Shown here: positions 2,534 to 38,025 of the stretch, piece by piece | How the letters are laid out: each line of letters opens with the position of its first letter | How positions within the stretch are numbered: the stretch's first letter is position 1 | Assembly (NCBI GenBank): GCA_030268105.1 | Contig: BSDZ01000024.1 | Coordinates: 496,001-560,000 of the forward strand | DNA: 64,000 nucleotides | Source: Volvox africanus | Taxonomy: Eukaryota > Chlorophyta > Chlorophyceae > Chlamydomonadales > Volvocaceae | Direction of reading: 5' to 3' | The notes under the pieces: model-generated | What the model was told of the DNA's origin: nothing | What the model saw: only the letters and a program-made list of their open reading frames with translations | Database searches by the model: none | Program-made: the position numbers and the translations under genes

Positions 2534-2788
2534 CTTCCGAGTCAAACAGCCCAGCAGCCACGTGTGCATAATCAAGGCTAGCGTGTCGGTTGACCTTCCC
2601 GGTTATTGTCGATAACTACACAGCGGTCCGCGGCGCTACTGATTTTGGGGTCGGACCAAGATTTTGGGGCAGCGGCAAGCATCACGTGTGCAGCGGGAAG
2701 GTAATGGTGCGCCGCCAACGCGCGCATAACCACTTCGCTAGGCGATCATATGTAATGCCGGGCTTACAGCTACCGGGGCCGAACATAC

Positions 2789-2867
2789 CTGCCACGGACG
2801 AAGCACCCATCCCCAGGATCAGGGCCACGGCGAAGAGCCCGGCTAGGGACGTGCGGCGTAGGTCCAT
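2789..2867 (-). pseudogene. orphan copy of gene B exon 1 (signal peptide)
   Basis: This is the mirror copy of 9143-9221 and encodes the same signal peptide, beginning MDLRRTSLAGLF, followed by the same GTATGT splice donor. Homology to gene B ends at 2668, inside the first intron. Beyond that point lies the 3' flank of the NUP160-like gene, with no exon 2. A transcript from here could therefore not make the family protein. Confidence 0.85.
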
Positions 2868-3548
2868 TGGGTCGAGTTCAGAAACCTCCGCCGATACACA
2901 AATGAAGCTTCTTTAAGTACGCTGAAACACAGTGCTCCGTCGCTGTAAGTGCTCCGTCCAGTGCTCCGAAAGTCATGTGGTGCTTGCTGAGGGAGCTGAC
3001 ACAGAGCCGGACTTTATGCCTGTGCTGATCTCCATGTAACGCACGTCAACTGCCCCAGTGTGCATTTATCCGTTATTTCGGTTTCTTGACCGAGGGGGGC
3101 ATCCTAGAAGTCTGAAGTAATCGATTTTCCACCATGGGAGCCCGTTGGACTCACTCGTGGACAGCTAGAACCTTGGACAGGTAGGGAGGTCGTGATTGAG
3201 GTGGCTTCGCATCTGCATCTGCGTCCCCGCCCGCCCCGGGTGTGCATTCCTAGGTGCAGCTTCACCCTTCACATCCCACGTCGCGACCATGACGTGACGA
3301 AGAACCTGCGCCCACCCTTCAGTACCACCCAGATTATCGGGACCCTGCAGGAACTGTTACTTGACCATGATCCGTCGTTGACGGCACACCTTCACCCGCT
3401 TCACCAAACCTGATGTTGTTAAGGAGGGACCCCATCGTTCAGCAGCAGCAGCAGCACGGTAATCTGCACTCGCAACAATCGAGAATCGAGGATCGGCTGG
3501 ATAAAAACAAGTTGGATAGAAACGCGGATAGAAACAAGACGAGTTGGG

Positions 3549-3573
3549 TGATGATGATGATGATGATGATGAT
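3549..3573 (+). repeat. (ATG)n microsatellite in left arm, mirrored at 8437-8461
   Basis: An uninterrupted GAT/ATG trinucleotide run. The mirror run in the right arm has the same length. Long microsatellites change length quickly, so equal lengths argue that the two arms are very young, recently homogenised, or one sequence counted twice by the assembler. Confidence 0.85.
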
Positions 3574-4986
3574 GACCTATTATGTAGTAATGGTATAGCG
3601 GTGTGTTGAACAACTGATAGATCTGAGCCAGACCTTCTTAACGGACAACGTTGTGCACCACTGGGTTTGGATTTGCAGTACGCAAGTACCTGAAGTACCA
3701 CATATGACACGGTCCTGCCCCCTCACATGGCCGTGTGCGTATGAACGAGAGGGAGGGAGAGAGGGAGAGTTGTTGCACTGAAACTACCTGCACCGTGCGT
3801 TCTCAAAGTATTGTTAAGAGCGCCGGGTACTGCTTTCCAAACGAGCTATCGTTTTATGTACTGGATCAGGTGCACCAACGGCCGTTTCGGGGTCTGCTGA
3901 AGTCCCTCACGCAATCACTGCAGACTCTTCCGAGGATCAAGAATCGCTCACGTAATTACTCAACTTCCGCCTTCCAACTGTTATGACTGTTCAGCGGCTA
4001 CTTCTCTGATATGACGTGTGCTGTGTGGTAGCTATATCGTCCAATCTGCTTTGCTGCGGGTAGATTGATATCATCCGCGCAGTCCTCCCGTTCGACACGT
4101 ACGACACATTGATTGTGATCGGGTCATATCGGCGCAAAGTTACAAGAAAACATGAAAGCTCGTGTGAACGACAACGGGAAGACTCCGGCAACGCATGTCG
4201 GCAACCCCACATTCCTAAATGCATCGCCAACGGTCCTAAGCCTCGTCAACGGACAAGGGGCAACCAGTACGGCCTTTCCCTCGCACCCTCTCGGCACATC
4301 TCTAATCAACATTCTATTGCCCAACGCCCAACTTCCCATTTTCAACATCCTCCAGACACTATTACTGCGTATATACGATAGATACCCAGTGCAGCCACTC
4401 CGCTCCGCCCCAAAGTTGCTTACACCCTTTGGTGGCTACGCCCTTCCTGTGCAGTTTGGGGGAAAGGGCGGGACGAGGTCCGGTCCATCACCGCGACATC
4501 AACTTTCTTGCAATACAGCAGAGTTGTCGTAGGCAAGATGGTTCCTCCTCCTCTGCCTTCTCATATGCAGGGACCGAACAAAGCAAAGGCTACTGCTAAT
4601 GCTGCTATTACCTCGTGCAGTCCGATACGGACCTTCAGCAGCCCACGAACCCCACCAGTGTAACGGCGAGGGATGCCCTCCCAGATCGTCTTCAACATGG
4701 CCCGTTTCTCTCCCCACCCCGCCTCATAGCCTTCCAACCCGCGGCATCCGACACGCCAGAACGCCGTGTTCTGGGTCCAGGCATCCGATACTTTACTCTT
4801 TACACACAAAGTCGCACCCCAGCCTGTGTCAGTTGACGATACGTCGAACTAAAGTATCGTTGCGAAATCCCAACCTCCAACCGGCAGAGGCTGCGGTGCA
4901 CAGAGTGCTCCACAATCGCCTGGCCCTTGCCGTTGGTCCTTACCATGGTCAAGGCGTGCCGACCCCCACGTCAGCCAGGTCGTCCT

Positions 4987-5109
4987 TTAGCCACCACACT
5001 CGTCCATAATGTTGTCGATGGTCTTCTTCGTGTCCTTCAGGAAGTTATTTACCTGGTCTCGGTACGTGGGGACCTCCAGGCAGTCGTAATACTTTGCGAA
5101 TGGCAGTAG
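4987..5109 (-). pseudogene. orphan copy of gene A exon 3
   Basis: This is the mirror copy of 6901-7023, with the KYYDCLEVP motif, terminal Cys-Gly-Gly and stop. It is preceded on the minus strand by the same splice acceptor. In the present orientation no exon 1 or exon 2 lies upstream on the minus strand, because the spacer carries those on the plus strand. It would become the working exon 3 of gene A if the spacer inverted. Confidence 0.85.
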
Positions 5110-5687
5110 CTGCGTTCGCGATCCGCGGGAGTGGGAACAGGTTGGGTTTGCAAGGAAAGACAAAAGTGCAAATGCATGGAAAGATAATTGCTTATTTGCA
5201 CTATGCGTCATTGAGGGCCGTCGTTGGACAGTCCATGGTCCCGGACCCTGAGCCACAACGAGTGCATTCTTCTTTACCATTACAGCATGAGGACACCCGA
5301 CAGGCCTTATGCGGCAGTCCCCGCAGCGACTTACCGTGTGTCAGGTGCGGTACAAGCTTCCGGGATCATCATGACTCCCGCTTCGCGACATGGTACGCAA
5401 AAACGTTTCATTTAATTTTGACAGGGAGCCGAGGAAGGCTGACCAAACTGTGACAAGGATGACGGATTCTCGGGCCCTCGAAGCATGTCGAATTGTACGA
5501 CGGATTCCATCCTGTTTTTGTCAAGCGTTTGCAACCTTAGGCACTCTGTACGGGTGCAGCAAACGGGCACTTCAAAGCATTTTAAGCCGGCGGACGTGAA
5601 TCTCTTCATTCGGCTGTCAGTATATTTGTTATCATCGCAGACGGACGTTCACATTCCGCAGACAGGTAACGGTCCACAAATCCAGCA

Positions 5688-7023
5688 ATGAATCCTCGGC
5701 GCGCCTTCATCATCGGCCTTGCCGCAGCGGCGCTCATCCTCATGCTGGGCGCCTCTACGGTGTCTGGTGAGTGCTTCCGGACACAAGGTTTACATCCAAG
5801 AGTACCTTCCCGAGAGGGTTCTGATCCGAAAACTTCTTCACTGGCGCATCATTGCTGCACGCGCAGAAGTGAAATGCCAGCCGTGATAGGCTTCGGGAAC
5901 TTCGGACTAGAATTAATCAACGCTATCATCTTCAAAATTATGCTTTTCAAAATGTGCCCCGTTGTGAGGTTACTTTCGGATTCACCAATTCTTGATCCCT
6001 AAATCTTTCGTTCCAATACATGATGTGACCAAACCCTGGGCTATCGGAAACTGACGCGTGGCTTCTGGCCGTTTCTGTTAGTTCCTCGACTCTTCCCGAC
6101 AGCCCCATATTTGAGGTGCCCGGATGCGAGCCCTCGACATGCCCGACCGACACACGGGCCAAGACTGAAAACGTGTAGCTCAGCCCCAAAATGGCCAATC
6201 ACAGCATTCTGACGCACTTCGCGCCCGACTTCCGCCGCGTGCTTCCCCATCCCTATAGAAGTTTATCAGCCCGTGGTTGCCCTGCCCCGTCGCATGTTCG
6301 CTGCCATGCCATTCACAACGTGAACCCGGCTTGGACCCTTGCAGCTGTGGACACTGCCATGTGCGATCAGGCCGGTCGGGATCTGCCGAATAACCCGGAC
6401 ATCAAGGCTTTCAAGGACTGCGCCTACTCGACCCTGACTCCGCGTTGCTGCCGCAAGGTGGGTGATTGAATGTTTGGCCGTTTCGGCTGCTTGCGTTCCT
6501 GGGCGTTGTCTCCGCAGTTTGGGTCTGGGACAAAAACATATAACAAAATAATTTATTGATTCAATTACTGTTTTCATATTTTCCACATCTCCATAACACA
6601 AGCTCGGTCGGCATGACGTGGACTTGTGATTCAGAGATCACGTCCGCAGGGTCCGCTATCCCCGCAAGTGGCAAAACGGAAGAAAGGGGGACCTTGCAGG
6701 CGGCGGCGCACAGCTCTCCACAATCCCGGATCGGATTTCCAGCACAGGCCTCCAGCGGGCCCTGCCGGGTCCACTCTTTTGCCGTATGCGTCAGGAGGCT
6801 TCGAAGATAAATAGCCGTAAACCCGTCTTTCCATGCATTTGCACTTTTGTCTTTCCTTGCAAACCCAACCTGTTCCCACTCCCGCGGATCGCGAACGCAG
6901 CTACTGCCATTCGCAAAGTATTACGACTGCCTGGAGGTCCCCACGTACCGAGACCAGGTAAATAACTTCCTGAAGGACACGAAGAAGACCATCGACAACA
7001 TTATGGACGAGTGTGGTGGCTAA
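5688..7023 (+). CDS. six-cysteine small secreted protein, paralogue A
   Basis: A 104-residue predicted secreted protein in three exons: 5688-5766, 6345-6457 and 6901-7023 (phases 1 and 0). Exon 1 is a signal peptide starting MNPRRAFII, with a hydrophobic Ala/Leu core and ending in Ser-Gly. Exon 2 has Cys, then LPNNPDIKAFKDC, then a CC pair. Exon 3 has KYYDCLEVP and a final Cys near the stop. Spacing is C-x18-C-x8-CC-x11-C-x27-C. Exons 1 and 2 lie in the spacer of the inverted repeat and exon 3 lies in its right arm, so intron 2 crosses the repeat boundary. Paralogues B, C and D follow on the same strand. I do not recognise the family. The spacing is loosely like plant eight-cysteine (LTP/2S albumin) proteins lacking two cysteines, which is only a hypothesis. 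Confidence 0.82.
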
Positions 7024-9342
7024 AGGACGACCTGGCTGACGTGGGGGTCGGCACGCCTTGACCATGGTAAGGACCAACGGCAAGGGCCAGGCGATTGTGG
7101 AGCACTCTGTGCACCGCAGCCTCTGCCGGTTGGAGGTTGGGATTTCGCAACGATACTTTAGTTCGACGTATCGTCAACTGACACAGGCTGGGGTGCGACT
7201 TTGTGTGTAAAGAGTAAAGTATCGGATGCCTGGACCCAGAACACGGCGTTCTGGCGTGTCGGATGCCGCGGGTTGGAAGGCTATGAGGCGGGGTGGGGAG
7301 AGAAACGGGCCATGTTGAAGACGATCTGGGAGGGCATCCCTCGCCGTTACACTGGTGGGGTTCGTGGGCTGCTGAAGGTCCGTATCGGACTGCACGAGGT
7401 AATAGCAGCATTAGCAGTAGCCTTTGCTTTGTTCGGTCCCTGCATATGAGAAGGCAGAGGAGGAGGAACCATCTTGCCTACGACAACTCTGCTGTATTGC
7501 AAGAAAGTTGATGTCGCGGTGATGGACCGGACCTCGTCCCGCCCTTTCCCCCAAACTGCACAGGAAGGGCGTAGCCACCAAAGGGTGTAAGCAACTTTGG
7601 GGCGGAGCGGAGTGGCTGCACTGGGTATCTATCGTATATACGCAGTAATAGTGTCTGGAGGATGTTGAAAATGGGAAGTTGGGCGTTGGGCAATAGAATG
7701 TTGATTAGAGATGTGCCGAGAGGGTGCGAGGGAAAGGCCGTACTGGTTGCCCCTTGTCCGTTGACGAGGCTTAGGACCGTTGGCGATGCATTTAGGAATG
7801 TGGGGTTGCCGACATGCGTTGCCGGAGTCTTCCCGTTGTCGTTCACACGAGCTTTCATGTTTTCTTGTAACTTTGCGCCGATATGACCCGATCACAATCA
7901 ATGTGTCGTACGTGTCGAACGGGAGGACTGCGCGGATGATATCAATCTACCCGCAGCAAAGCAGATTGGACGATATAGCTACCACACAGCACACGTCATA
8001 TCAGAGAAGTAGCCGCTGAACAGTCATAACAGTTGGAAGGCGGAAGTTGAGTAATTACGTGAGCGATTCTTGATCCTCGGAAGAGTCTGCAGTGATTGCG
8101 TGAGGGACTTCAGCAGACCCCGAAACGGCCGTTGGTGCACCTGATCCAGTACATAAAACGATAGCTCGTTTGGAAAGCAGTACCCGGCGCTCTTAACAAT
8201 ACTTTGAGAACGCACGGTGCAGGTAGTTTCAGTGCAACAACTCTCCCTCTCTCCCTCCCTCTCGTTCATACGCACACGGCCATGTGAGGGGGCAGGACCG
8301 TGTCATATGTGGTACTTCAGGTACTTGCGTACTGCAAATCCAAACCCAGTGGTGCACAACGTTGTCCGTTAAGAAGGTCTGGCTCAGATCTATCAGTTGT
8401 TCAACACACCGCTATACCATTACTACATAATAGGTCATCATCATCATCATCATCATCATCACCCAACTCGTCTTGTTTCTATCCGCGTTTCTATCCAACT
8501 TGTTTTTATCCAGCCGATCCTCGATTCTCGATTGTTGCGAGTGCAGATTACCGTGCTGCTGCTGCTGCTGAACGATGGGGTCCCTCCTTAACAACATCAG
8601 GTTTGGTGAAGCGGGTGAAGGTGTGCCGTCAACGACGGATCATGGTCAAGTAACAGTTCCTGCAGGGTCCCGATAATCTGGGTGGTACTGAAGGGTGGGC
8701 GCAGGTTCTTCGTCACGTCATGGTCGCGACGTGGGATGTGAAGGGTGAAGCTGCACCTAGGAATGCACACCCGGGGCGGGCGGGGACGCAGATGCAGATG
8801 CGAAGCCACCTCAATCACGACCTCCCTACCTGTCCAAGGTTCTAGCTGTCCACGAGTGAGTCCAACGGGCTCCCATGGTGGAAAATCGATTACTTCAGAC
8901 TTCTAGGATGCCCCCCTCGGTCAAGAAACCGAAATAACGGATAAATGCACACTGGGGCAGTTGACGTGCGTTACATGGAGATCAGCACAGGCATAAAGTC
9001 CGGCTCTGTGTCAGCTCCCTCAGCAAGCACCACATGACTTTCGGAGCACTGGACGGAGCACTTACAGCGACGGAGCACTGTGTTTCAGCGTACTTAAAGA
9101 AGCTTCATTTGTGTATCGGCGGAGGTTTCTGAACTCGACCCAATGGACCTACGCCGCACGTCCCTAGCCGGGCTCTTCGCCGTGGCCCTGATCCTGGGGA
9201 TGGGTGCTTCGTCCGTGGCAGGTATGTTCGGCCCCGGTAGCTGTAAGCCCGGCATTACATATGATCGCCTAGCGAAGTGGTTATGCGCGCGTTGGCGGCG
9301 CACCATTACCTTCCCGCTGCACACGTGATGCTTGCCGCTGCC
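6826..9342. repeat. right arm of 2,517-bp inverted repeat
   Basis: Mirror of 2668-5184. It contains the functional exon 3 of gene A (6901-7023), the whole A-B intergenic region, exon 1 of gene B (9143-9221) and 121 bp of gene B intron 1. Because both exons sit in proper gene context here, this arm is the likely original and the left arm the inserted inverted copy. The spacer between arms is 5185-6825. Confidence 0.95.
7024..9142. other. A-B intergenic region inside right arm
   Basis: About 2.1 kb with no open frame I can support. The reading frames present have no recognisable motif and are duplicated in mirror image in the left arm. A TGTAA, the common volvocine poly(A) signal, occurs near 7205, after the gene A stop. 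Simple repeats include the (ATG)n run and a short (CTG)n run near 8558. Confidence 0.6.
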
Positions 9343-10642
9343 TTCCCAGCCCTTCAGGGCCCCTGGGCCCCCTCATGGGCATGGGCTGCCTGGCGCAGGT
9401 CCGGGGGCGTGTGCAATGCACACCGGCCATCCCCAAGAACGTAATGCACGCACAAGTACAGACACATACAGACATATACACTCTCTTTCTGTCAGCTAGT
9501 TATGACCCTTTTCTGATGATTCTTCGGTCCCCTATCATGATGTTTTCCACAACTCGGGCTTCCCCAAACTAATAATCGTGGTTTTAACCTTCCAAAACTC
9601 AAAAAAATGGTTGAACATATTGAGCATACGCATGGGGTTGAGATGTGACGGGCACTGCACCATAAGCCGCACCTCACCCGTGTATATATATATATATATA
9701 TATATAAGGGTTTTAGGGTTTAAAACTAAGAAACCCTAAAACCCTAAAACCCTATATAAACCCTAGTATATATATATATATATTATACTAGGGGACCCTA
9801 CAGGGACCCTCACTAGCTTTGTAAACATCCCAATCCGTTATTGCTGGCGACCGCATTTCCTGCCCACAACTCGCAGCTGTAGACAAAGCCCTCTGCGAGC
9901 AAGGCAGGCGAGTTCTCCCTAACGACCCCGGCGTCCAAGCCTTCAAGAAGTGCGCCTCTCCGGGGGATATCTCCACCAACTGCTGTGCAAAGGTGTGTTG
10001 GTGGTGTTACCGAGAAAGGGGAAGGACAGACTGAGAAGCAGGGGTGTGCGTGTACGTGTGCGCGTATATGCGCGTGTATATGCGTGCGCGTGTGTACACC
10101 CAGGAGGAGGGGCGGTGGCCATAGTGCTGCCATACAGTGCAAGGAGCGCTGTGTAGTCAATGCGCTGCCGCTTGCCCATAGGAACGTAAAGGACGGGCCT
10201 GATGTAAGTGTTCGTTCCAATACACAGGCCGCCAGCCACTGGGGAGCACTGCTTGCTTGTAGTTCCCCAGTACGTCCCCGTGTCTAACCAGGCTTATCCT
10301 GCCCGCCCGCCTGCCACTTGTAAGGTTTAGACTTATCCCAGCGTCGCCTGCTCATCACGTCTTTGTGCAGATGATGGAAGTAGCTGTGTATGTCCTCGTC
10401 TGTGCGAAAACGCCAATTGTATCCCAGCTTGCATGTCATCCTCCACCTGCCCTCCACTTTCCACTCTGCACTTTGTCGTTTGTTCACCCGCGACCCCATC
10501 TGGTGACTCCGCGCAGCTTGTCGCGATTGGGAAGTATTATGATTGCCTGAGCGACCCAACCTATAAGGCCCAAGTGAACACCTTCCTCGGCGGCGTCACC
10601 ACTGTGGACAAGGCCAAGAAGGCGTGTGGGATCAGCAAGTGA
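9143..10642 (+). CDS. six-cysteine small secreted protein, paralogue B
   Basis: A 106-residue predicted secreted protein with exons 9143-9221, 9877-9992 and 10517-10642 (phases 1 and 0, as in paralogue A). The signal peptide starts MDLRRTSLAGLF and ends SSVAG. Exon 2 carries CEQGRRVLPNDPGVQAFKKC and then CC. Exon 3 carries GKYYDCLSDP, AQVNTFL and a Cys five residues before the stop. Cysteine spacing is C-x18-C-x9-CC-x11-C-x26-C. Exon 1 and the first 121 bp of intron 1 lie in the right arm of the inverted repeat; the rest is unique. Intron 1 holds a TA/telomere-type palindrome and intron 2 a long alternating purine-pyrimidine tract. A TGTAA lies 35 bp past the stop. Function is unknown; secretion to the matrix or vacuole is inferred from the signal peptide. 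Confidence 0.82.
9683..9782. repeat. (TA)n flanking head-to-head telomere-type repeats
   Basis: Inside intron 1 of paralogue B: twelve TA units (9683-9706), G-rich TTTTAGGG-type repeats (9707-9721), a short centre, then C-rich CCCTAAAA repeats (9731-9765), then eight more TA units (9767-9782). The two telomeric tracts point towards each other, as at a telomere fusion or after capture of telomeric DNA at a break. The whole block is self-complementary. Confidence 0.9.
10044..10099. repeat. 56-bp strictly alternating purine-pyrimidine tract
   Basis: Lies in intron 2 of paralogue B. Every base from 10044 to 10099 alternates purine and pyrimidine, as a mixture of GT, GC and AT steps. Such tracts can adopt left-handed Z-DNA under supercoiling. 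No other role is visible. Confidence 0.85.
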
Positions 10643-11824
10643 GGGTGATGGCAGCGAGCCCCATACGACCTCTGGGTGTAAGTGTGAGATGCGGGAGGAC
10701 AGCTGGGGGCATGTGCTGCCTCGGGTCCATGAGCCCACGTTTTTCGGAAACGAGAGCTGTTGAATTGTCAAACCCCACAATGGACTGGTCTACAGCGAGT
10801 TTTGATGTTAACGGTGTCAGTGAATGGTGGGGGGTAGGGGACTTTACACGAACCGTCCCTTGGCTGCACCTTCCGTCGCCCGATCACCTTGCATCGAAGC
10901 AGAGTGGAAATTGTACGAGCGAAATGAAAATGTACTTTTGCCTTTTGATTTACTCGCCATGCTAGTCAATAGCTGCTATATAGCTTGTTATTTATGCCCT
11001 GTTGCAACAATATTAAATTATACATTCATTCCTCGGACGAGACTTCTGTCCTGAGTGTCTCCCTTGGTTGCGTGGCTATCCTCGCAGGTAGATGCGTCAA
11101 CAGGGATTCCAGTCGCCGCGTAAACCGCCGCTGCCCCCCCGCGCAACCTACCCGGGACACAATCGCTTCGTAGATGCACTCATCAAATGGACGTGTGTGT
11201 GACACAGCGAAGATCTTTCCCAAATTGCCGTTTTGAGTCGTTTGGTTGAGTTGATTGGTTTGTTGCTTGGTTGGTCCAACTGGCATGGCTGGAATTTGGA
11301 TGTTGCTTTCTGTTGGTGTGAAGTATTTATGAGAGGGAATCGAAGACATCCTGGTGCGGGGCCATAACCCCTACGAAAATGGACAGGAGAGCGAGGCCCT
11401 TGCTTGTCGAAACAGTGTAACGCATGTACGACCTGCGTAAGCGATCTTGCAGTCCCTCAAAAATTTACGACATAAAATGCAGCTCTGTGGTCCCTGAGAT
11501 TTTATTCAAAAAGTTCCAAACCTAGAAGAGCTGTCCTAGCCCTCTCATGTTTATGTGCATGAGGTAATGAGGTTGTAAGTTCGGTGGATCAGTATGCCCA
11601 GCTCAAGATAATGTATTTTTGAATGGCTAAGGTTGACTTGTTTGACTTGTCCGAAGAGGACGCCAACCACCTGCGAGGAGCTGACCTCAGAGCAATGTAG
11701 TACAACAGCAGTACAGCGCTGAGCAAGGAAGGAAGAAACAAGATGCTGTGGTGGTTCGATAAGTTGACTAAGAGGATCAGCAATTTCCATACTATTCTTG
11801 AAAATCGCTTCAGTCATTAAGGCC
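10643..11824. other. B-C intergenic region
   Basis: It contains TGTAA at 10677-10681, a plausible poly(A) signal for paralogue B. No coding segment, RNA gene or transposon is recognised in the rest. Confidence 0.5.
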
Positions 11825-13191
11825 ATGGCCCGTCGTCGCGCCTTCGCTTCCCGCCTAGCTGCCGCGGTGCTGATCCTGATATTTGGTGGTGCGGCAATCG
11901 TCAGGGGTAAGTGACTATAAAAACAATTGGGTAAGGATGAGAGAGTGTGTATGTGAAGCAGCAGAGAGCACTATGTGCTCGCAGCAAGGGCGGAGTTATC
12001 CGCCGTACATGCCGAATTTTTAATGACCCTTGGGACTTTGCAAGGACAGCTCGAGGTCTTTGGAAATTAGTCAGCACATGCACTTTTTTCTTTTGGTCGC
12101 TGTTGAATTCTTGTGACCCTTGGGTCGTTAAGTCAGCGGTGTGAGACGATAACTTCCTTTTGTGACATCAAACACAACGGATTTAGAGCGCACAAAGTGA
12201 AATAGTGCACTGTATGTGAAAACTTAATGTGTCATCAACCACTTAATTTGTATATTCTGCTTTGACTGCATGCTTTGCTACAGCCTGTCCCTATTTTACC
12301 TGTGACGATTGTTTGCAGGTTTGGACACCACCAATTGCGACCAAGCCGGCAAAACGCTCCCCGGCAATCCTCACTTTAAGGAGTTCCTGGCCTGCATCCA
12401 TCCACCTCGCCTCGATGCTTCATGCTGCATCCACGTGCGTTTACTACCATAACAGGTTCTTTTGGGTTTGTAAGGGTAGCTTCAGGAATGTACGGTACGT
12501 TACTTTTGGATGTATATGTGTGAGCTTTGGAGACTTCCTGGAGGAATGGAATAAGAGATTAGGACTGAGAGCCTGCGGCTTGCACCTTGTCACTGTCGCA
12601 TCGGCGAACGCGCCAACGAGCCAACGTGCGTCTAAGTGGCTTGATTGGACAATCCACGGCTTTTACGGTTATACTTCGTTCTTTTCTTACTTTTACTGAT
12701 CTGCTGTTGCAAGGAACGAAGTTCCAACGGATCCAAGACAGATAAGGATTAGTAAGGGTTAGTTACTCCCATGTTGACCCGAAAGTGCCGTAAGTTTGCC
12801 CCCCAAAGTTAAGGACACCTAAATGATTGAAAGTTTTGAGTAAACCGTTGTCGCCACTGTAGCCGCTCCACTGAAAGCAGGTGAACCCTGCAGTGAACCC
12901 TACAGAAGCCATAAAGCCCCACAACCCGTCGTGATGCGTGAGTCCACGGCACGAGCTTGGCTCAGCAGTGTGCTTGTCGTGCTGCCTAATCCCTATCGTT
13001 CTCCTGCTGCGCGTTGGGATCTCCACTCGGTTCGTTTTCTCAACAACCCTTCTCTCGCGCCGCTGCAGCTGCCGATGGCAACACCGAATCTCTACGACTG
13101 CCTGACGGTCCCATCATTCGTGGCGCAAGTTAACCAGGCCGTGAGAGGAAAGACCGATGCGACAGCGATTCAACGTGACTGCAAGAGCTGA
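11825..13191 (+). CDS. six-cysteine small secreted protein, paralogue C
   Basis: A 106-residue predicted secreted protein with exons 11825-11906, 12319-12434 and 13069-13191 (phases 1 and 0). The signal peptide starts MARRRAFASRL and its exon is nearly identical at DNA level to exon 1 of paralogue D. Exon 2 has CDQAGKTLPGNPHFKEFLAC and a CC pair. Exon 3 has NLYDCLTVPSFVAQVN and a final Cys-Lys-Ser. Spacing is C-x18-C-x9-CC-x12-C-x26-C. Exon 3 is more diverged here (Asn-Leu-Tyr-Asp where the others have Lys-Tyr-Tyr-Asp). A segment conserved with paralogue D lies about 360 bp past the stop. Function is unknown. Confidence 0.82.
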
Positions 13192-13949
13192 AGACGTCCG
13201 GAACCGGAGACCCAACGGGCCCTTTTTGAGGCGGTGCTGGTGAGCTTTGCTTCTGTTGATTTCGTTGCCGAGCGTCGGTTACTCGATTGGGACTTGAAAC
13301 TGTGCTCGTTGTTGGCGATAAGTGGCTTGTTAAGGGTGCTGAGACAGAATTCCAAAATCGACCGTGTTGAAGGGTTTTCCTATTTCGTGGGATTAGGATG
13401 GCGCACAGGATGCCGCGGCGTCCTGTCCATCCTGATGCTCTGATCCTTCCTTGACTCGTCACCTCCTCACATTCAACTTCACCCCAACCTTGGTGAGTAC
13501 ACCAAGCACACAGGTCGTCTGGTAGCCGCAAGATCTTAACCCGGGATCTCTACCTGGGCATCACCCTCGCGCTAACGCTTTCACTGCTGCGCAGGATGGA
13601 GGTCAGCCACGGTGCGTTTAAGCTGGAACACAGAATATAATATGCCAGTAAAGCGCAGCACAGCACAGCATAGCACAGGTCGAGAGCCATTCCTGTTCTT
13701 TAGCAGTGCGAAAGTCGATGAACGGTTGATTGCGTATGATTTGAAAGTTAGGAGACGTTTCTGCATCGTTGTAGGCTAGCTGTTGTCAGTTGGTTGTTGC
13801 TGACCTTGCACCGGGAAGGTGTTAGGGTGCTAGGAGTACGATTATGACATAACATGATTGGATCCTCGGTGGTCATGGTTTGCCACTTATATAAAGAGAG
13901 CCCTGATATACCTAGCCTCCCCGAGGAAGCTCAGTTAGGAACGGTCAAA
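13192..13949. other. 3' flank of paralogue C with segment conserved after paralogue D
   Basis: The stretch 13552-13631 matches 16819-16897 after paralogue D with only scattered changes. It starts with a CTGGGCATCACCCTC-like block, then a CTGCGCAG that looks like a splice acceptor, then a block ending TGCGTTTAAGCTGGA. It could be a spliced 3' UTR exon or a shared regulatory element. The rest of the interval shows nothing I can name. Confidence 0.6.
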
Positions 13950-14420
13950 GCTAGGAAAAGTTGAATTTATATCAAAAAAAGATCGTAAACTGGCGCATAC
14001 TTGTACGCCAAGGTTAACCACTTCTTTTATATCTTTTGATAGAGATTCTATTTCTGAAACTAATAACGAACTGGTATGATAAGGCAAAATTTTGAAAGGA
14101 ATAAACCGCACTGTAATATTGTAGCACGATATTAAAATATTAGATCAAGAAATTGATAGAGCAAATGCAGCTGTTTTAGGACTGGGTAATTTAGTAGCGG
14201 CAGCTTCCAAACGCAAGTTGTGGAGTTAAGTGGGAACATTAATAAACAAATAGGTGAATGAAAAACGTTTAGAAAGTGCCCAGACATGTGTTCATCCGAC
14301 AGGTATTGCTATCGAATTGCCGGCACGGTTTGAAATTTGGGGATTTGGCCCAATATAATAAAATTCACGAAACGATAGCGTGAATCTGTATCAATCAACG
14401 TTACGACCCGTACATCGTTT
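13950..14420 (+). pseudogene. AT-rich decayed coding-like segment
   Basis: Base composition turns sharply AT-rich compared with the genes on both sides. In one plus-strand frame there are protein-like stretches broken by stops, such as LDQEIDRANAAVLGLGNLV followed shortly by a stop. I do not recognise the source. The AT-rich codons suggest transfer from an organelle, a virus-like element or a transposon, but nothing decides between these. Confidence 0.3.
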
Positions 14421-15623
14421 TCCTTAGCGGCGTTATGCGCTTCACTCGTTTGTCCCATTACCTCGTCCCATGACCTGTTCTGCGGAGGATCAGTTTGTCG
14501 CTAGTGGAACGGCACTTCCCTTACGTGGCACATGTCCTGAGATTGCTACCCAAGAGATTGTGCCTTCACGTGAGAAGGCAAGAGGGTAAAGGACAACACG
14601 AAACAGTAATGTCCTTGGAAAGTCGGCGGCGGGAGCGCCGCAGGAGGGCGCAGGTGACATAACCGGGCCTTCATTACTCCTCTCTGAGTGCACCCTAAAA
14701 AAGGAGGGCTATACGGGCTGGGGAGCACTTGACGGTATTTCCGAGTCTATCGCACGCACACATGCAATCCAGTGCAATCTGAAACAGCCCAAAACCGTTC
14801 GTCTAGCTCTGGTCGCAGTTATGGCAGCGGGTTCACTATGCATCAACTATAGCTCGAGTTATAGTAAGGACCGAGGGGCCTGAAACCTTGAGGGCCGAAC
14901 GAAGAACAATCTGGACCTTACGTGGTCAGGCATAATAGCTCGCTAGCCTGGAGGTCTCAAGTAGGACGCATATGACGAGTACACATGACGTTAGACGTCT
15001 TGTTGAACCACGGGCCACGGCACAAACTTGTTACGACCACCAAACGTGAGGAAAGGATGATTAATTGGTATATTGTAGTTATGCGACAGCGGAGAAGGAC
15101 GGTAAGGAGCGGTAGTAAGGATTCAGAAGCCCATGCGGGGTAGATCGGAACCGACCTGTCACCCAGGCTCATGCAGGCTCGCGCGGCTGGCATAGCTGCA
15201 TGACGTGCAGGAGGGCATGCTGCAGTATTATTCATTTAATACATAAATTCGATCGACCAATCTTGCAGGGTGGGTCACCAAATTTACCATATCAGTGACA
15301 GCAAAGGAAACCTAGTACGTACGCCTACTTGGTGCCAATGATAACCTATCGACGGAAATTGCATGACAGATTGACCGACTACCGAACGCTAGGGGTAGCG
15401 CATTGGATGCCAGCGACGCTGTCCGATGGAGTTACACAACGAAGTCACAATTGACAAATCCAGTGGATTTGCCGGATTGGTAAGGTGGGATATAAGGCCC
15501 AGGTTGCTCTTCAAGCCATCGTAAGTGGCTACGTTGCAATTATGCATGTTTACAAACTTCCATCTTCATTTTATCGTTCCCAGAGACCGAGACTAGGTTC
15601 TAACGTTTGAATTTATCCCAATA
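14421..15623. other. intergenic region upstream of paralogue D
   Basis: No supported coding frame, RNA gene or repeat seen. The promoter of paralogue D should lie at its right end, but no motif stands out. Confidence 0.4.
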
Positions 15624-16732
15624 ATGACAGCCCGTCGTCGCGCCCTCGCTTCCCGCCTAGCTGCCGCGGTGCTGATCCTGATCTTTGGTGGTGCGGCAAT
15701 CGTCAGGGGTAAGTTATTTTAGGAGTACCCGTGGATGTGGCGAAGTGCTCTTGACAAGGACGGGTATGTATATCCACCTGGTGATTCGTATGTATCAAAT
15801 TTCCAGCATCCCTGCGCGACGCCTTAACTAAGGCAACGGTGCGGCTGCAGAAGGTGTAAATGTGCATCAAAACGCTTCTGTGGATTTCGCACCTCTCATC
15901 GTACTATAGGCGACACGCTATCGTTGATCGCAATCCCCCGTTGAATTCTGACCCAGGTGACCCATGGGTCGCTGTACCACGCATATTTGACGTCATCCGC
16001 CACTCACCCGGGAAAGGCGTCAGAAATCCATGGCCCGCGGCAGCGATTGCTCCCCGCTGCAATGGAAAGACAAGCACCAGGGGCATGTTTTGGCGCGAAT
16101 CTCACACTTCAATTCCGCGCCCCTCGATTCACCTGACTGCGTTAATTGCCACCAAAACCCAAGCCCAACGCCCACCTTGTGTATGTGTGTCAACTACTTG
16201 CAGCTGTCAATACCACCCTCTGTGTGGAGGTCGGCATGACGCTGCCCGACAATCCCGAGGTCAAGGAGTTTCTCAAGTGCGCCAATCCAGTCCACATCCT
16301 GCCCTCGTGCTGCCGTCATGTGAGTTGACCCAATTAACGCTCCGAACCCCTAACTAACTAACCAGGGCTTGCCCTTCATAGTCCTATGGGGGCTCAGGTT
16401 CTCCCTGGGGAGGGTGAGACGGCTGCTGACCAGCCGGGCTGAGACTGCCGCATAGGGCCCTGGGCAAAGCAAAGAACGCCTGGGCCTGACTGCCGCCGCC
16501 GTGAAGTTGACGTAAATGCCGCTGTCACCGCGCAGTTCTGCCATGGATCCCATGACCTTGCCCAATCCCTCCCCCTGCGTGCCTCTCCCTCTCTCCGTCC
16601 GCTATATGACAGCTGTTAACGCTAACGAAGTATTACGACTGCCTGACTGTTCCCGCCTTCGTCGATCGGATCAACCGGTTCCTGAACGGCAAGACAACCG
16701 TCAACGGCGTGCAGCAGGACTGCGTGAGCTGA
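15624..16732 (+). CDS. six-cysteine small secreted protein, paralogue D
   Basis: A 106-residue predicted secreted protein with exons 15624-15708, 16204-16319 and 16613-16732 (phases 1 and 0). The signal peptide starts MTARRRALASRL. Exon 2 carries CVEVGMTLPDNPEVKEFLKC and a CC pair. Exon 3 carries TKYYDCLTVPAFVDRIN and ends Cys-Val-Ser. Spacing is C-x18-C-x9-CC-x11-C-x26-C. It is the last recognised member of the array. TGTAA at 17189-17193 is a candidate poly(A) signal, which would give a 3' UTR of about 460 bp containing the segment shared with paralogue C. Function is unknown. Confidence 0.82.
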
Positions 16733-17802
16733 AGGTGTGGCCGACACAAATGGGCTGCAGAGGCTGCCCCTGGGGATGTACCTCTGGGTTGTGCCTCGTG
16801 TCGGTTGGTTTGCTCTCAACCTGGGCATCACCCTCACGCGACCCTTTCACTTCTGCGCAGGATGGAGCTCAGCCACGATGCGTTTAAGCTGGACCACAAA
16901 GAGGGTCGAATTTCAGCGCTTATGGAGCAATTGCGCGGTTGTCCAGCAGTTAGATGTCAGCGCGTCATTTGACGAGTGCAACCCACATTGTTTTTCATTT
17001 GACATTGATGGCTTCTCTGCACTTCTGAGCGGGCAGTTGGGGGCTTTTTATAGAGGCCTGTTCGATCTAGGGGCATCTTCCGCTGATGTTCAGCTCCAGT
17101 TGATGATGACCAAAGTTCATTTGTTTAAGAATTTCCGTTGGCTGAAGAGCTTTTATTTGTCGACGCCGAAGACGCAGTTCGGAAAAGATGTAATCCAATG
17201 CCCCTGCAGTCTTGCAGGATATGTTAGTTGTTGGTTGTCCTTAACGAATGATGCAACAGAAATGCATACAACAATTTCGCAGTTCGCAAGTTGCTATAAT
17301 CATTACTGAAACGGAAGGTCAGCAGGGCGCCCGGTACCCAAATGGTGCTTTTCCAGCACTCATCCCGTATTCGCAACGGGAGATGTACGACGACCATGAT
17401 GATGAACGATGATTATGATGTAAGGCACTGAGACCAGACTGAGACCAGACATAAGGCCCCACCCGCACCTGCCTAGAGTATTTAAAGGAGCTTCCCTCGC
17501 GCATTCCCACAACACTAAGGAAACAACTGCCACGTCATCGGCACCTCCGGCCCTTTCGCAGCTCCGACCTACTTCACGGGACTGACCATAATATGAAAAA
17601 CCGGACTTTGTCTATCTGTCTGTTTGCCTGTCTCTCTGCTTGCCTGTCTGTCTGTTTGCCTATTGGTCCGTCTGTGCGTCTGTCTGACCGTTGCAGCTTC
17701 TTTCGGCGAGGATCACTGCTTGTACACTCTCTCACTGAAACGCACATAGCTACGCCCACCAATGATCATGCAAGCCGCTGTGCCTTCCAGCCTTCCGGGG
17801 GC
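16733..17802. other. 3' flank of paralogue D, shared segment and CTGT-rich repeat
   Basis: 16819-16897 is the segment shared with the flank of paralogue C. TGTAA lies at 17189-17193. A pyrimidine-rich CTGT/CTGC microsatellite-like tract runs about 17609-17690. No gene is supported. Confidence 0.5.
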
Positions 17803-32824: not shown

Positions 32825-35800
32825 ATGGCTTCCCGTTATCGTTCGTCATGGTTCCTGAGCTGCATTCTTATATTGATGTATATGTTGATAAACTTACAAG
32901 CGCAGCCTTCTCATGCAAACGGCGAAGGCACGATTGCCGGTAAGGTCGTTCTCGTTTTGGTTCATGCGTGCTGGTGATTTAGGGCACCCTCGGGATTCAG
33001 TCACTTGCAACGCTTGCTTTTATCAGGAACGATTTTGATTCTTATGGCATCGCTAATGAATGGAGAAGACACAACTCAGTTTTATTTGCAAGCCGATGGA
33101 GCTCAGTTGTATCGACTCAGCTTCTGCGATGATGTGCCGCTTGGCGAAATCCTCCCAAATTCCCATGTGGTTATCAGCTACACGAAATCTGAGGGTGGCG
33201 TCCTGTACTCATGCAAGACGCCCCAGCCGGACCAGGACCGTCGGGTCTTGTTTGGCAACACAATGACAACGCCAGCAGCGCCAAGTTTCTTGGTTTATGT
33301 CCCAAAGTTTTGTGGATACGAAAATTCAGTTATGCCTACGTACAATGTAAGGAGCGAGTTCGCCATTTTGCACGATGTTCGACCCAAGTTGCTATTTACA
33401 ACCTTCGGGTTGTTTTATACTATATATAGTTTGGCACAATCAGGTTTTGCTTTGGAGCACACCGATTATCTGATGAACGATTATTTTGGTTTGGACCGTT
33501 TTATGGGTGGCTAAGCCTCCCCTGCCTACCGCCCCTGCTCCCTTTCTTCCCAGGACATCATGAACTTTTTTAGCGGTAGCACCCCTCAAGGAAGGAACTT
33601 GCTTGGATACTTCAAGCAGTGCTCTTATGGCAAGGTTTCCCTCGGGCGCATCACGGTCATCAACAACTTCACCATTCCCTGCTCCGGATCCGTGGAACTC
33701 AGCTTTACGTTTCCCACGGGAAACAACTTTGATACGAAGTCCTGCAACAACGACAACATGCTGAAATGGCATTTCTACCTGGACTCTCAGATGGACGGGG
33801 ATGACCTTCCGACAGACTTCCACCACAAAGTCCTCCTCCTGCCCAAAACCTTCACCAGGTTACCAGGTGGGTGGAAAGTCCAGTTGGGATGACTTCAATG
33901 CCTGACTCCATCGTAGCGCCTGCGACGGCAGCACAACGAGGTCTGCCCTGTCCCTTGGAGGCGCATATGCTGCAGCACCAGCATGTACTGCAGCATTCTC
34001 ATGAATATCCGCAACATCGACGACAAGGCCTTCGGGTTGCCCACTGCCTCTTTTACAAAGTCAAATGATGTCGGATGAAGAGGCGGAGCACCGTGCAGAT
34101 AATAGCCCGTGAAGGCGCTGAGTCGAGGCTAAGGGGGCCCTTCAAGCCGCGATTTACCCGGACTGGCAACCTTCGCTCACTTACGCTCATCCTTCCACCT
34201 CCAAAATTCCCACCCATACTTCACCCTGCTGATGCTGCTCTACTATCTTGTGCTGTATTGCTCACTGCTCGCTGCTCACTGCGCCATTCGTCGCTATTTC
34301 ATCCCCTGAACCCCGCAGGCTGCAACGGGATTGCCGGGTCAGCCTCCGTTGGACCCTGGCTTCGCCAATACAGCCCGGTGAATAACTGGGGCACCGGCCT
34401 GATCTGGTGGTCAGGTGACTCGTTCGGAGATGTGGAGCTCCTCTTTCACGAAGTCGGTCACAACATGAACATGGCCCATGCCAACATTCCTGGAGGCTGC
34501 GACCTGCAAGACCAATGCGATGACACGTGTCCCATGGGCGGAGCTGGCGGCCAAGGCGTTCGTTGCCTCAACGCCCCTCATAACTGGCAGGTGTGTCAGG
34601 CAAGAGGAGGCAAAAGGATCACTGCAGAGCATAATCCCCCTGATGCGGGGATGAAGACACATAGTCGAAATCCCACATCCGGTCATAGTGAGGCTTCATC
34701 GTCCAAAGCTTTCCTTGATGGCGGCGCACAACCCAAGCTGCGACATCATTGTAATGTCTGCTTCGATTGCCTGTTACGTTTCTTTCCAAGCACACCTGAT
34801 GATTAGGATTCCGGCTAGGGATTAGGCCGCTTATCGAGAAGGAAGAATTGTGCCGGATTATGAGATGGCGGCTGCTGAACCGGCAACTTCGGAGTCAGCA
34901 ACCCAACCCTCGTAGCCTGTATCGTGTCATATCACCCTTTGATCTCTTTGACACCTTGCTTGATCTGTCGAAACCACAGCCGCCTCTCCTTCGCTTGCGC
35001 CCACTCTCCCGCCGTACTGATGTGCGCCGCCTCATTCATTCCGTTCTCCGCCCTGTTGCCCCGTCACCTTCAGGTGGGCTGGGGCCGGCCCTTCCTAGAT
35101 CTCAGTGACAACAGCGACACCAGCCTACGGCCTGGTCTCGCACAAAACGTCACAATCCCTAGCCAAATGAGTGTGCCGAATAGCTCACTCACCGTACGTT
35201 TCAATAATATGCTGGTAAACCAAAGGCTGTACATCTCAGTACGGATCAACACACCACCATACGACTTGCCATTCTCGAAAGACAAGAACAACGTCCCATT
35301 CGTACTCATTCATAGTTACTCTGGTACGGCGACAGCGCAGTACGTACGGACAGTGAAGTTGGGCATGATTGAAAGAGGTAGTAAGTTCATAGACTCCAGT
35401 GGGCTGGTGGTCAGATTCAAGGATTGGGATGGCGATTCTGCAACCGTGGAGTTGTGCAGACGAATTGGTGCAACAGAAACGACGTGCGGTGACGGTCTGG
35501 ATGATGACTGCGATGGACTGCCAGATTCAAAGGACGGAGATTGTGACGGTGCCGGATCAGATATAACAATGGTAGATACAGGCGGTAACCCTTCACTAGG
35601 TGGCACCGCCACCGGCGCTCTTGCTCCGCCTCCAGGTGCTATCAGGACCCCTGTCCGTTCCCCTTTCCTGCGCCGGCCTCCACCGCCAGCACGGAAGGCG
35701 CCTGTGGTGCGGCCCCCCCCCCCACCGCCCCCCCCCCCACCGCCCCCACCGCCGCCACCGTTTCTGCCGATGTTCCCGTCACCTAAGCGACGACGGCCGC

Positions 35801-38025
35801 CACCTCCAGTGAAGCGACCGCCCCCGAAGCCATCTCCCCGCAAGCCACCGCCCCCTAGGCCACCGCCCCCTAGGCCACCGCCCCGCTTCCCACCGTCACC
35901 ACCGCCATCCTCACCTATTGCGCCGTCCTTCCCGCCACCTCAGCTTCCAGAAGTGCCATCTGCACCACCACCCAGCCCATCCCCATTAAACCCTAATGTA
36001 CCCAGTTCTCCTAATCCTCCACCACCACCACCACCACCACCCAGCCCATCACCACCACCTCCACCACCCAGCCCATCACCACCACCACCACCACCCAGCC
36101 CATCACCACCACCTCCACCACCCAGCCCATCACCACCACCACCACCACCCAGCCCATCACCACCACCTCCAATACCCAGCCCATCACCACCACCACCACC
36201 ACCACCACCACCACCACCCAGCCCATCACCACCACCTCCACCACCCAGCCCATCACCACCACCACCACCACCCAGCCCATCACCACCACCACCACCACCC
36301 AGCCCATCACCACCACCTCCACCACCCAGCCCATCACCACCGCCACCACCACCCAGCCCACCACCGCCACCACCACCACCCAGCCCATCACCACCACCAC
36401 CACCACCCAGCCCATCACCACCACCACCACCACCCAGCCCATCACCACCGCCACCACCACCACCAAGCCCATCACCACCACCACCACCACCCAGCCCATC
36501 ACCACCACCTCCACCACCACCACCCAGCCCATCACCACCACCGCCACCAAGCCCATCACCGCCACCACCACCAAGCTCACCACCAAGCCCATCACCAGCT
36601 CCACCATCATCACCACCGCCACCACCAAGCCCTCCACCACCGCCACCACCAAGCCCATCACCACCACCACCACCAAGCCCATCACCGCCACCACCACCAA
36701 GCCCACCACCAAGCCTATCACCGCCATCACCACCACCGCCATCGTCACCACCACCACCACCCAGCCCATCACCACCGCCACCTCCAAGCCCATCACCACC
36801 ACCTCCACCAACTCCCCCACCGACAAGCCCACCACCATTTCCACCACTAACCCCACCACCACCTCCACCACAAACCCCACCACCACCACCACCACAAACC
36901 CCACCACCACCACCGCCGCCGAGCCCACCACCACCACCAGCACCCGGCCCTCCACCACCACCACCACCACCCAGCCCATCACCACCACCATCACCAAGCC
37001 CACCATCATCACCACCACCACCAAGCCCTCCACCATCACCACCACCACCCAGCCCATCACCACCACCTCCACCACCCAGCCCATCACCACCGCCACCACC
37101 ACCACCAAGCCCATCACCACCACCACCACCAAGCCCACCATCACCACCACCACCGCCACCACCACCACCCAGCCCATCACCACCACCATCACCAAGCCCT
37201 CCATCACCACCACCATCACCAAGCCCACCATCACCACCACCACCACCAAGCCCACCACCACCACCACCACCAAGCCTACCACCACCACCACCCCCAAGCC
37301 TGCCACCACCACCACCACCAAGCCCACTCTCATCATCACCAGTGTCATCGCCACCCTTTCCGTCGCCACTCTCGCCCCCACCGCCCTCTCCGTTGCCGCC
37401 GTCACCTCCCCCCCCTTCGCCATCACCTCCCTCACCACCACCACCCTCACCGCCGCCACCCTCACCACCACCACCCTCGCCTCCGCCACCCTCACCACCA
37501 CCACCCTTGCCGTTCCCGTCTGTGCAACCTTCTCCATCGCCGCCTCTCTTCTTAAGGCTTCCAGATCCCTCCCTTCCCCCGCCTCCGCCTCCGCCGCCTC
37601 CGCCGCCTCCGGAACCGTCAACTCCTCTCATTGCAGCGGGCAGCATTACGAAGGTGCAGCCGCAGCAGCAGCACCAGAACACGTCACCATCATCCCAGCA
37701 CTCCTCACGTCCCCCGCCACCGAAGGCCAAAAGAACAAAAAGGAAGCCAGATCTGGACAATTTGCCCGTCGAGCTTCCAACAAGCCCTCCTAAGGCCCCG
37801 CCTCCATTTAAGCCATTGCCGTCCCCGCTGATACCGTCCCCGCTGCCACCGCCGCCGCTGATGCCCGCGCCGCCTCGGAAGTCCCCGCCGCCACCAAAGC
37901 CAATCCCACAGCCAAAGCAACCCAAAAGCCCTTCCAAGCCGAAGGCTCCTCGGAAACCTCCGAAGCGACCACGGCTTTCCTGGGAAGACTTCGGAGATAT
38001 CGGCGCCGTCAACATTGGGAGGTAA
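32825..38025 (+). CDS. VMP/gametolysin-like secreted metalloproteinase with Ser-Pro tail
   Basis: A predicted protein of 1,323 residues in five exons: 32825-32939, 33027-33346, 33554-33866, 34319-34590 and 35074-38025; phases 1, 0, 1, 0 all match. Residues 1 to about 33 form a signal peptide (MASRYRSSWFL...). Next is a peptidase M11 (gametolysin)-type domain with RLSFCDDVPLGEILPNSHV, HHKVLLLP, the zinc site HEVGHNMNMAH at about residues 293-303, a CPMGG Met-turn-like segment and NAPHNWQVGWGRP. Around residue 478, CGDGLDDDCDG followed by KDGDCDG resembles a MopE-type metal-binding repeat. Residues of about 530-1190 are almost pure Ser-Pro and poly-Pro, as in volvocine cell-wall and matrix proteins. 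A basic Pro/Lys tail follows. The known Volvox VMP proteins combine these same parts. TGTAA lies 228 bp after the stop. The likely role is extracellular-matrix remodelling. Confidence 0.9.
36014..37520 (+). repeat. CCA-rich minisatellite coding (Ser-Pro/poly-Pro) repeats
   Basis: Within exon 5 of the metalloproteinase gene. An approximate 27-bp unit encodes poly-Pro followed by Ser-Pro-Ser, repeated dozens of times with drift towards PPS and SPPSPP variants. Proline is encoded almost only by CCA here, while the flanking Pro-rich parts use CCC and CCG more. This suggests expansion from one repeat unit by slippage or unequal exchange. Long minus-strand Gly-rich and plus-strand His-rich frames are shadows of it. 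Confidence 0.9.

What the first reader, a model, noticed from the sequence alone, without database searches (positions are those of the whole stretch)
5688..16732. Tandem family of six-cysteine secreted proteins with conserved three-exon structure
Four genes on one strand share exon phases (1 then 0), an Arg-Arg signal peptide, the pattern C-x18-C-x8/9-CC-x11/12-C-x26/27-C, and the motifs LP-x-(N/D)-P...F-x-x-C and (K)YYDCL-x-x-P. I know no named family with this pattern. The fold may be a reduced form of the plant eight-cysteine helical fold, or something new. Tandem expansion, sequence drift and secretion suggest a role in matrix, mating or defence.
Basis: partly seen in the sequence, partly recalled or inferred. 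Interest (0 to 1): 0.75.

Follow-up and report, generated by a model that had tools for sequence, protein, structure and literature searches.

The report
Volvox six-cysteine secreted helical proteins
Four neighbouring Volvox genes make small, apparently secreted proteins with six conserved cysteines; they belong to an unnamed protein family found in Volvox, Chlamydomonas and their relatives, possibly working like the lipid-carrying proteins of plant cell walls.

Summary
Genes A-D lie at 5688-16732 on the + strand. Each has three exons (phases 1, 0), GT-AG introns, a signal-peptide exon and C-x18-C-x8/9-CC-x11/12-C-x26/27-C. The window is Volvox africanus 1101-NZ-11. C and D equal deposited gene models letter for letter; A's mature part matches one too.

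Two further members, E and F, lie on the same contig. Relatives occur in V. carteri, V. reticuliferus, Pleodorina, Astrephomene, Edaphochlamys and Chlamydomonas; no named hit was outside this group in three capped searches. No Pfam or NCBIfam family fits. Two AlphaFold2 models agree on five helices. Foldseek found no convincing match.

Best reading: an undescribed family of about 8 kDa extracellular proteins working like a reduced plant eight-cysteine lipid-transfer protein. Only a weak profile resemblance to type-2 nsLTPs supports this (3 of 700 and 2 of 400 cysteine-preserving shuffles reach it), with two of the six cysteines out of register. It fails membership tests for nsLTP and EC1. Ligand, expression and role are untested. 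A perfect 2.5-kb inverted repeat brackets gene A.

The parts
5688..5766 (+). gene A exon 1 (signal peptide), phase 1 donor GTGAGT
   Evidence: counterpart in V. reticuliferus P0003
6345..6457 (+). gene A exon 2 (Cys1-Cys4)
6901..7023 (+). gene A exon 3 (Cys5, Cys6, stop)
   Evidence: equals the end of P0008
9143..9221 (+). gene B exon 1 (signal peptide)
9877..9992 (+). gene B exon 2 (Cys1-Cys4)
10517..10642 (+). gene B exon 3 (Cys5, Cys6, stop)
   Evidence: relatives P0005, P0006, P0020 in one clade
11825..11906 (+). gene C exon 1 (signal peptide), nearly identical to that of D
   Evidence: P0002 identical
12319..12434 (+). gene C exon 2 (Cys1-Cys4)
   Evidence: P0002 identical
13069..13191 (+). 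gene C exon 3 (Cys5, Cys6, stop)
   Evidence: P0002 identical
15624..15708 (+). gene D exon 1 (signal peptide)
   Evidence: P0001 identical
16204..16319 (+). gene D exon 2 (Cys1-Cys4)
   Evidence: P0001 identical
16613..16732 (+). gene D exon 3 (Cys5, Cys6, stop)
   Evidence: P0001 identical
4987..5109 (-). second, identical copy of gene A exon 3 in the left arm of the inverted repeat
2789..2867 (-). second, identical copy of gene B exon 1 in the left arm of the inverted repeat
2668..5184 (-). left arm of a 2517-bp perfect inverted repeat
6826..9342 (+). right arm of the same inverted repeat (A intron 2 to B intron 1)

Best explanation
Genes A-D are a tandem array from an undescribed family of secreted proteins of the Chlamydomonas-Volvox group (mature part about 76-78 aa, about 8 kDa). 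Exon 1 is the signal peptide and ends at the likely cleavage site; exons 2 and 3 encode a compact five-helix domain that three disulfides would staple. Most likely (inferred) it works outside the cell as a small carrier or scaffold for a hydrophobic ligand of the matrix or zygote wall, in the way of a type-2 plant nsLTP reduced to six cysteines. Likely pairing C1-C5, C2-C3, C4-C6: the type-II nsLTP pairing without its C6-C8 bond. Shown: gene structure, cysteine pattern, family, distribution as far as searched, predicted helices. Inferred: secretion, pairing, ligand binding, site of action.
For: Gene models and pattern. Members E and F on the same contig with six cysteines and a signal-peptide exon. 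22 related proteins from three searches: 4 are this genome's own A, C, D and F; of the other 18, 17 have a named source, all from the Chlamydomonas-Volvox group. The six-Cys pattern (spacings 17-18, 8-10, 0, 11-12, 25-27) is in 21 of 25 sequences tested (22 found plus A, B, E, some duplicates); the four exceptions P0010, P0011, P0017, P0021 are partial or look like altered gene models. Two AF2 models give the same five helices; pLDDT by ten-residue block is 86-94 over the mature domain apart from one block of 74 that includes signal-peptide residues. Type-2 nsLTP profile score 18.8; 3 of 700 and 2 of 400 cysteine-preserving shuffles reach it. UniRef names 6 of the 22 'Bifunctional inhibitor/plant...' and one 'Prolamin-like', by automatic naming as far as I can tell. 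A Chlamydomonas eight-Cys nsLTP, CrLTP2, binds C20-C24 fatty acids, resists protease and is late-zygotic (PMC9832785).
Against: No CXC and no eight cysteines. C1-C2 spacing is 17-18 residues against 7 in 1l6h and 9 in 1afh. No nsLTP among Foldseek hits. Type-1 nsLTP comparison null: 30 of 150 cysteine-preserving shuffles reach it. In the type-2 alignment (probability only 7.9%) Cys1, Cys3, Cys4 and the last cysteine are in register but Cys2 and Cys5 are not. Type 2 was chosen after I had noticed a DP-x-Y resemblance, so the shuffle odds flatter it. No expression, ligand or localisation evidence.
Confidence: 0.37

Rival explanations
1. Structural or cross-linking component of the volvocine wall and matrix, with no ligand: a small disulfide-stapled module that binds hydroxyproline-rich glycoproteins.
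For: Signal peptide and cysteine scaffold; present in the unicellular Chlamydomonas, so not tied to colony form; more copies found in Volvox species, whose matrix is larger (general knowledge); a long Pro-rich frame lies 18 kb downstream of D (34879-38025).
Against: No Pro-rich tails or repeats in the aligned members and no matrix-protein family match; mature proteins are only about 76-78 aa.
Confidence: 0.25
2. Extracellular signal: a family of secreted cell-cell signals (sexual inducer, gamete or wound signals) acting through a receptor, by analogy with EC1 and other reproductive cysteine-rich proteins.
For: Same cysteine order as EC1 (order recalled; six cysteines from PMC8702097); lineages duplicated and kept distinct: B, E and F each group with a V. 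carteri sequence; C and D share a near-identical signal exon but differ in the mature part; C and D relatives diverge faster (55/71, 54/70).
Against: A and F are well conserved between V. africanus and V. reticuliferus (67/70, 66/69), unlike fast-evolving recognition proteins; no RWP-RK gene, the family of MID, on this contig, so no hint of sex linkage; no expression data.
Confidence: 0.2
3. Defence protein: antimicrobial or protease/amylase inhibitor of the prolamin superfamily type.
For: Small, cysteine-rich, with a signal peptide; tandem expansion is common in such families (general knowledge); automatic 'bifunctional inhibitor' names.
Against: Calculated pI runs from 5.2 to 9.0, so not uniformly cationic; no inhibitor family match.
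Confidence: 0.1

Closest known systems
Plant type-2 non-specific lipid transfer proteins (rice 1l6h, wheat 1n89, DIR1 2rkn)
   Same: All-helical (nsLTP fold recalled), about 67-77 aa, order C..C..CC..C..C; CC-x-x-(L/M) and DP-x-(Y/F) blocks align, with Cys1, Cys3, Cys4 and the last cysteine in register; weak profile score above shuffles.
   Different: Eight cysteines with CXC and a C-terminal C8 against six with none; Cys2 and Cys5 out of register; C1-C2 18 residues against 7 in 1l6h; two helices between C1 and CC in the models; no Foldseek link.
Algal nsLTPs AI/AII, including CrLTP1/2 (Huang et al. 2023, PMC9832785: abstract, sections 5, 6, 9, 11 and part 1 of section 12 read)
   Same: Green-algal, secreted, cysteine-rich, introns inside the motif, tandem pair in Chlamydomonas.
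   Different: They keep the eight-cysteine motif with CXC; CrLTPs are 173 and 212 aa on chromosome II, whereas P0016 is CHLRE_07g325200v5 (chromosome 7 by its tag). The paper lists 0 in Edaphochlamys and Astrephomene, where this family has members P0014 and P0018.
EC1 / ECA1 'Prolamin-like' proteins of flowering plants (PMC8702097, passages read)
   Same: Small secreted proteins with six cysteines.
   Different: [quoted passage not shown] here no Trp follows either cysteine in the members aligned and A-F have two introns. No PF05617 row.
Volvox VCRPs (Hallmann 2007, 2008; only reference-list entries seen)
   Same: Small cysteine-rich extracellular proteins of Volvox, by their titles.

Membership tests
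nsLTP / eight-cysteine motif | C-Xn-C-Xn-CC-Xn-CXC-Xn-C-Xn-C (definition from PMC9832785) | tested here: not met
   Six cysteines in the mature part, no CXC, in A-D, E, F and the aligned relatives
nsLTP / eight-cysteine motif | match to an LTP or bifunctional-inhibitor Pfam model | tested here: not met
   No such row for 21 members at E up to 10, though HMMER's filters drop most matches above about 0.1
nsLTP / eight-cysteine motif | nsLTP fold | tested here: inconclusive
   AF2 all-helical; no nsLTP among Foldseek or VIA rows; hhalign with type 2 weak, with type 1 null
nsLTP / eight-cysteine motif | N-terminal secretory signal peptide | tested here: met
   Basic n-region, hydrophobic core and small residue before the mature part in A-F, judged by eye; no predictor was available
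nsLTP / eight-cysteine motif | binds lipid | not testable with these tools
   needs protein
EC1 / Prolamin-like (PF05617) | six cysteines | tested here: met
   six cysteines in the mature part of A-F
EC1 / Prolamin-like (PF05617) | conserved Trp after Cys1 and Cys5 (PMC8702097) | tested here: not met
   no Trp follows Cys1 or Cys5 in the aligned members
EC1 / Prolamin-like (PF05617) | Pfam profile match | tested here: not met
   no PF05617 row for 21 members, same filter caveat
VCRP | sequence similarity to Volvox VCRP | not testable with these tools
   paper PMC2634000 not held; no sequence at hand

The most novel reading that the evidence does not exclude
A small disulfide-stapled five-helix fold not represented in the PDB, which arose in the Chlamydomonas-Volvox group before multicellularity (Chlamydomonas and Edaphochlamys have it), split into distinct lineages (B, E, F) before the V. 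carteri and V. africanus lines parted, and was expanded in Volvox for extracellular ligand carriage or signalling.
Probability: 0.3. Interest if true: 0.6.

Novelty: new variant of a known kind. Interest (0 to 1): 0.4.

Why it matters
The family is a genetically accessible case: one Chlamydomonas reinhardtii gene was found (P0016), several in each Volvox species. If it binds lipid, the plant eight-cysteine carrier scaffold would have a six-cysteine counterpart in chlorophytes that the motif-based search of PMC9832785 could not see, because that search required CXC. If it does not, it may be a new small extracellular fold. Either result bears on how the volvocine matrix was equipped during the move to multicellularity.

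Tried and rejected
Sequence families: Pfam for A-D, NCBIfam for A-D and Pfam for 21 members gave no Cys-rich family; the seven Pfam rows match one member each (best OppC_N, E 0.004) and were set aside as chance. PDB sequence search with the A1 and A5 profiles gave only E 0.09 or worse; the ADP-ribosyl cyclase and USP38 rows were rejected as chance.

Type-1 nsLTP profile: null. Sex linkage: no RWP-RK gene on this contig among 12 matches over the cut-off, so no support. Positive selection: dS is above dN, or saturated, in the mature part of all 10 pairs among A-E. F was mis-spliced by one base, so its rows there were dropped; one search repeats A-E without F, and one search gives the corrected F. 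Literature: gene identifiers gave 0 papers.
Full report
What is there. A: 5688-5766, 6345-6457, 6901-7023. B: 9143-9221, 9877-9992, 10517-10642. C: 11825-11906, 12319-12434, 13069-13191. D: 15624-15708, 16204-16319, 16613-16732. All eight introns are GT-AG, phase 1 then 0. Exon 1 carries the signal peptide and ends inside the codon of the likely -1 residue (judged by eye), so the mature protein is exons 2 and 3. The 'Arg-Arg' is an ordinary basic n-region. The cysteine pattern holds in 4 of 4; the KYYDCL motif in 3 of 4.

Identity of the window. It is G000 contig 24, 496001-560000, a contig of 2,253,411 bases. Proteins P0001 (VaNZ11_009064) and P0002 (009063) equal D and C, and P0008 (009061) holds the mature part of A with a different, probably wrong, start. 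I take these models to belong to the V. africanus strain 1101-NZ-11 assembly of 141.0 Mbp, whose gene prediction used transcriptome data (PMC10291315, passages read); G000 has 140,993,249 bases. No deposited NZ-11 model for B was found.

The family. Searching the own genome exon by exon with six single-protein queries found two further genes, both on contig 24. E lies at 306,373-307,433 on the + strand, with phases 1, 0 and C-x18-C-x9-CC-x11-C-x26-C. F lies at 662,845-661,842 on the - strand, with C-x17-C-x9-CC-x11-C-x26-C and a second intron placed elsewhere, in phase 1 inside the Cys5 codon; its protein contains the deposited VaNZ11_009090 (P0012) letter for letter. The only match off contig 24 was one on contig 75 at E 1.37 with two stops, taken as chance. 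Only the best candidates are scored by that tool, so six is a lower bound. Three protein searches returned 22 distinct proteins, four of them this genome's own: V. africanus, V. reticuliferus, V. carteri (five, all with the same longest contig length), Pleodorina starrii, Astrephomene gubernaculifera, Edaphochlamys debaryana, Chlamydomonas incerta and C. reinhardtii CHLRE_07g325200v5. One (P0021, 45 aa) has no named source. Volvox and Edaphochlamys are both Chlamydomonadales. No other lineage appeared, but candidates share exact words with the query and were few or capped (7,994, 200 and 7,998 scored), so restriction to this group is likely, not proven.

History. A tree of 22 mature sequences gives supported clades for A with P0003; B with V. 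carteri 95955, P0005 and P0006; E with V. carteri 118936; C with its V. reticuliferus partner P0007; C, D, P0004 and P0007 together; and F with Astrephomene, Pleodorina and V. carteri 95986. Deeper forks are open, and P0010 is a long branch of unsure place. So B, E and F lineages predate the split of V. carteri from V. africanus, and the C/D group was found only in V. africanus and V. reticuliferus. Locus numbers suggest that the array and the F type sit about 26-34 genes apart in V. africanus (9061-9064, 9090), V. reticuliferus (5565, 5567, 5533) and V. carteri (95954, 95955, 95986); this is inference from tags. C and D share a nearly identical exon 1 (97.6% over 85 nt; dS 0.04, 0.09) though their mature parts have dS 1.27 and dN 0.44 in both calls. 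Exon-1 gene conversion is the simplest reading. Conservation over the Cys1-Cys6 region varies: A against V. reticuliferus 67/70, F 66/69, B 61/70, C 55/71; D against P0004 of another V. africanus assembly 54/70. So A and F are held tightly and C/D drift faster.

Relation to eight-cysteine proteins. I compared a 20-row mature alignment (of the 21 full-pattern sequences, P0008 was left out as a duplicate of A) with three type-2 and four type-1 nsLTPs by hhalign. Type 2 scored 18.8 (probability 7.9%), type 1 12.1. When the non-cysteine columns of the type-2 alignment were shuffled, 1 of 150 and 3 of 700 reached the real score; shuffling the family instead, 2 of 400; full column shuffles 1 of 150, with a maximum of 28.4. 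For type 1, 30 of 150 and 27 of 150 did. The aligned blocks are CC-x-x-(L/M) and DP-x-(Y/F). By my reading of the printed alignment Cys1, Cys3, Cys4 and the last cysteine meet nsLTP C1, C3, C4 and C7, while Cys2 and Cys5 do not meet a cysteine (Cys5 falls two columns beyond C6). I had noticed the type-2 likeness before testing, so this is suggestive only. If it is real, the retained cysteines would be those of type-II pairing (C1-C5, C2-C3, C4-C7; pairing from PMC9832785) without the C6-C8 bond; the full-pattern proteins end two to four residues after their last cysteine, where C8 would follow.

Mechanism. Step by step: secretion (inferred from the signal peptide), folding into a three-disulfide helical domain (inferred from prediction), extracellular role (inferred). 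The carrier reading draws on the biochemistry of CrLTP2 in Chlamydomonas, which binds C20-C24 fatty acids and appears late in the zygote (PMC9832785, abstract and section 11), but that protein is not a member of this family. I put the carrier reading at 0.37 (lowered from 0.4 when I recounted the alignment and found Cys2 out of register too), a structural wall part at 0.25, a signal at 0.2 and defence at 0.1.

Surroundings. A perfect 2517-bp inverted repeat (arms 2668-5184 and 6826-9342; the only two places found in the genome) flanks a 1641-bp spacer that holds exons 1 and 2 of A. Each arm holds an A exon 3 and a B exon 1, so an inversion of the spacer would leave A complete on the other strand. 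Whether this is real or an assembly artefact cannot be told without reads.

Novelty. No paper naming these genes was found in the held library by their identifiers; general searches listed none that I could tie to them. A survey of plant cysteine-rich peptides counted 77 in V. carteri without naming them in the passages I read (PMC5557327). The proteins are deposited as hypothetical, some with automatic 'bifunctional inhibitor' or 'prolamin-like' names. I rate it a new variant of a known kind: small secreted cysteine-rich helical proteins.

Noticed in passing
window 2668-5184 and 6826-9342: Perfect 2517-bp inverted repeat with a 1641-bp spacer; each arm carries A exon 3 and B exon 1, so the spacer with A exons 1-2 could invert and still leave gene A complete. 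Could also be an assembly artefact.
   Followed up: partly
window 11828-11912 and 15630-15714: Signal-peptide exons of C and D are 97.6% identical over 85 nt while the mature exons have diverged (dS 0.04 vs 1.27): probable exon-1 gene conversion.
   Followed up: partly
window 13547-13632 and 16814-16898: About 86 nt, 90% identical, downstream of the stop codons of C and D, containing an acceptor-like TGCGCAG; perhaps a shared 3' UTR exon.
   Followed up: no
window about 9700-9790: Telomere-like CCCTAAAA/TTTTAGGG repeats between TA-dinucleotide runs inside intron 1 of gene B (seen).
   Followed up: no
window 34069-38025: Frame with HEVGHNMNMAH (recalled as a gametolysin-type zinc-protease motif) followed by a long Ser-Pro-rich frame (tandem repeats 36019-37513): perhaps a Volvox matrix metalloproteinase-like gene. 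Unspliced pieces gave no Pfam hit.
   Followed up: partly
G000 contig 24, 662845-661842 (-) (L010): Member F lacks the usual second intron position and has one inside the Cys5 codon instead, an intron change within the family.
   Followed up: partly
V. africanus D (window 15624-16732) against P0004: D and its nearest relative in another V. africanus assembly are only 54/70 identical over the cysteine region, less than A between species (67/70); either fast divergence or non-orthologous copies.
   Followed up: no
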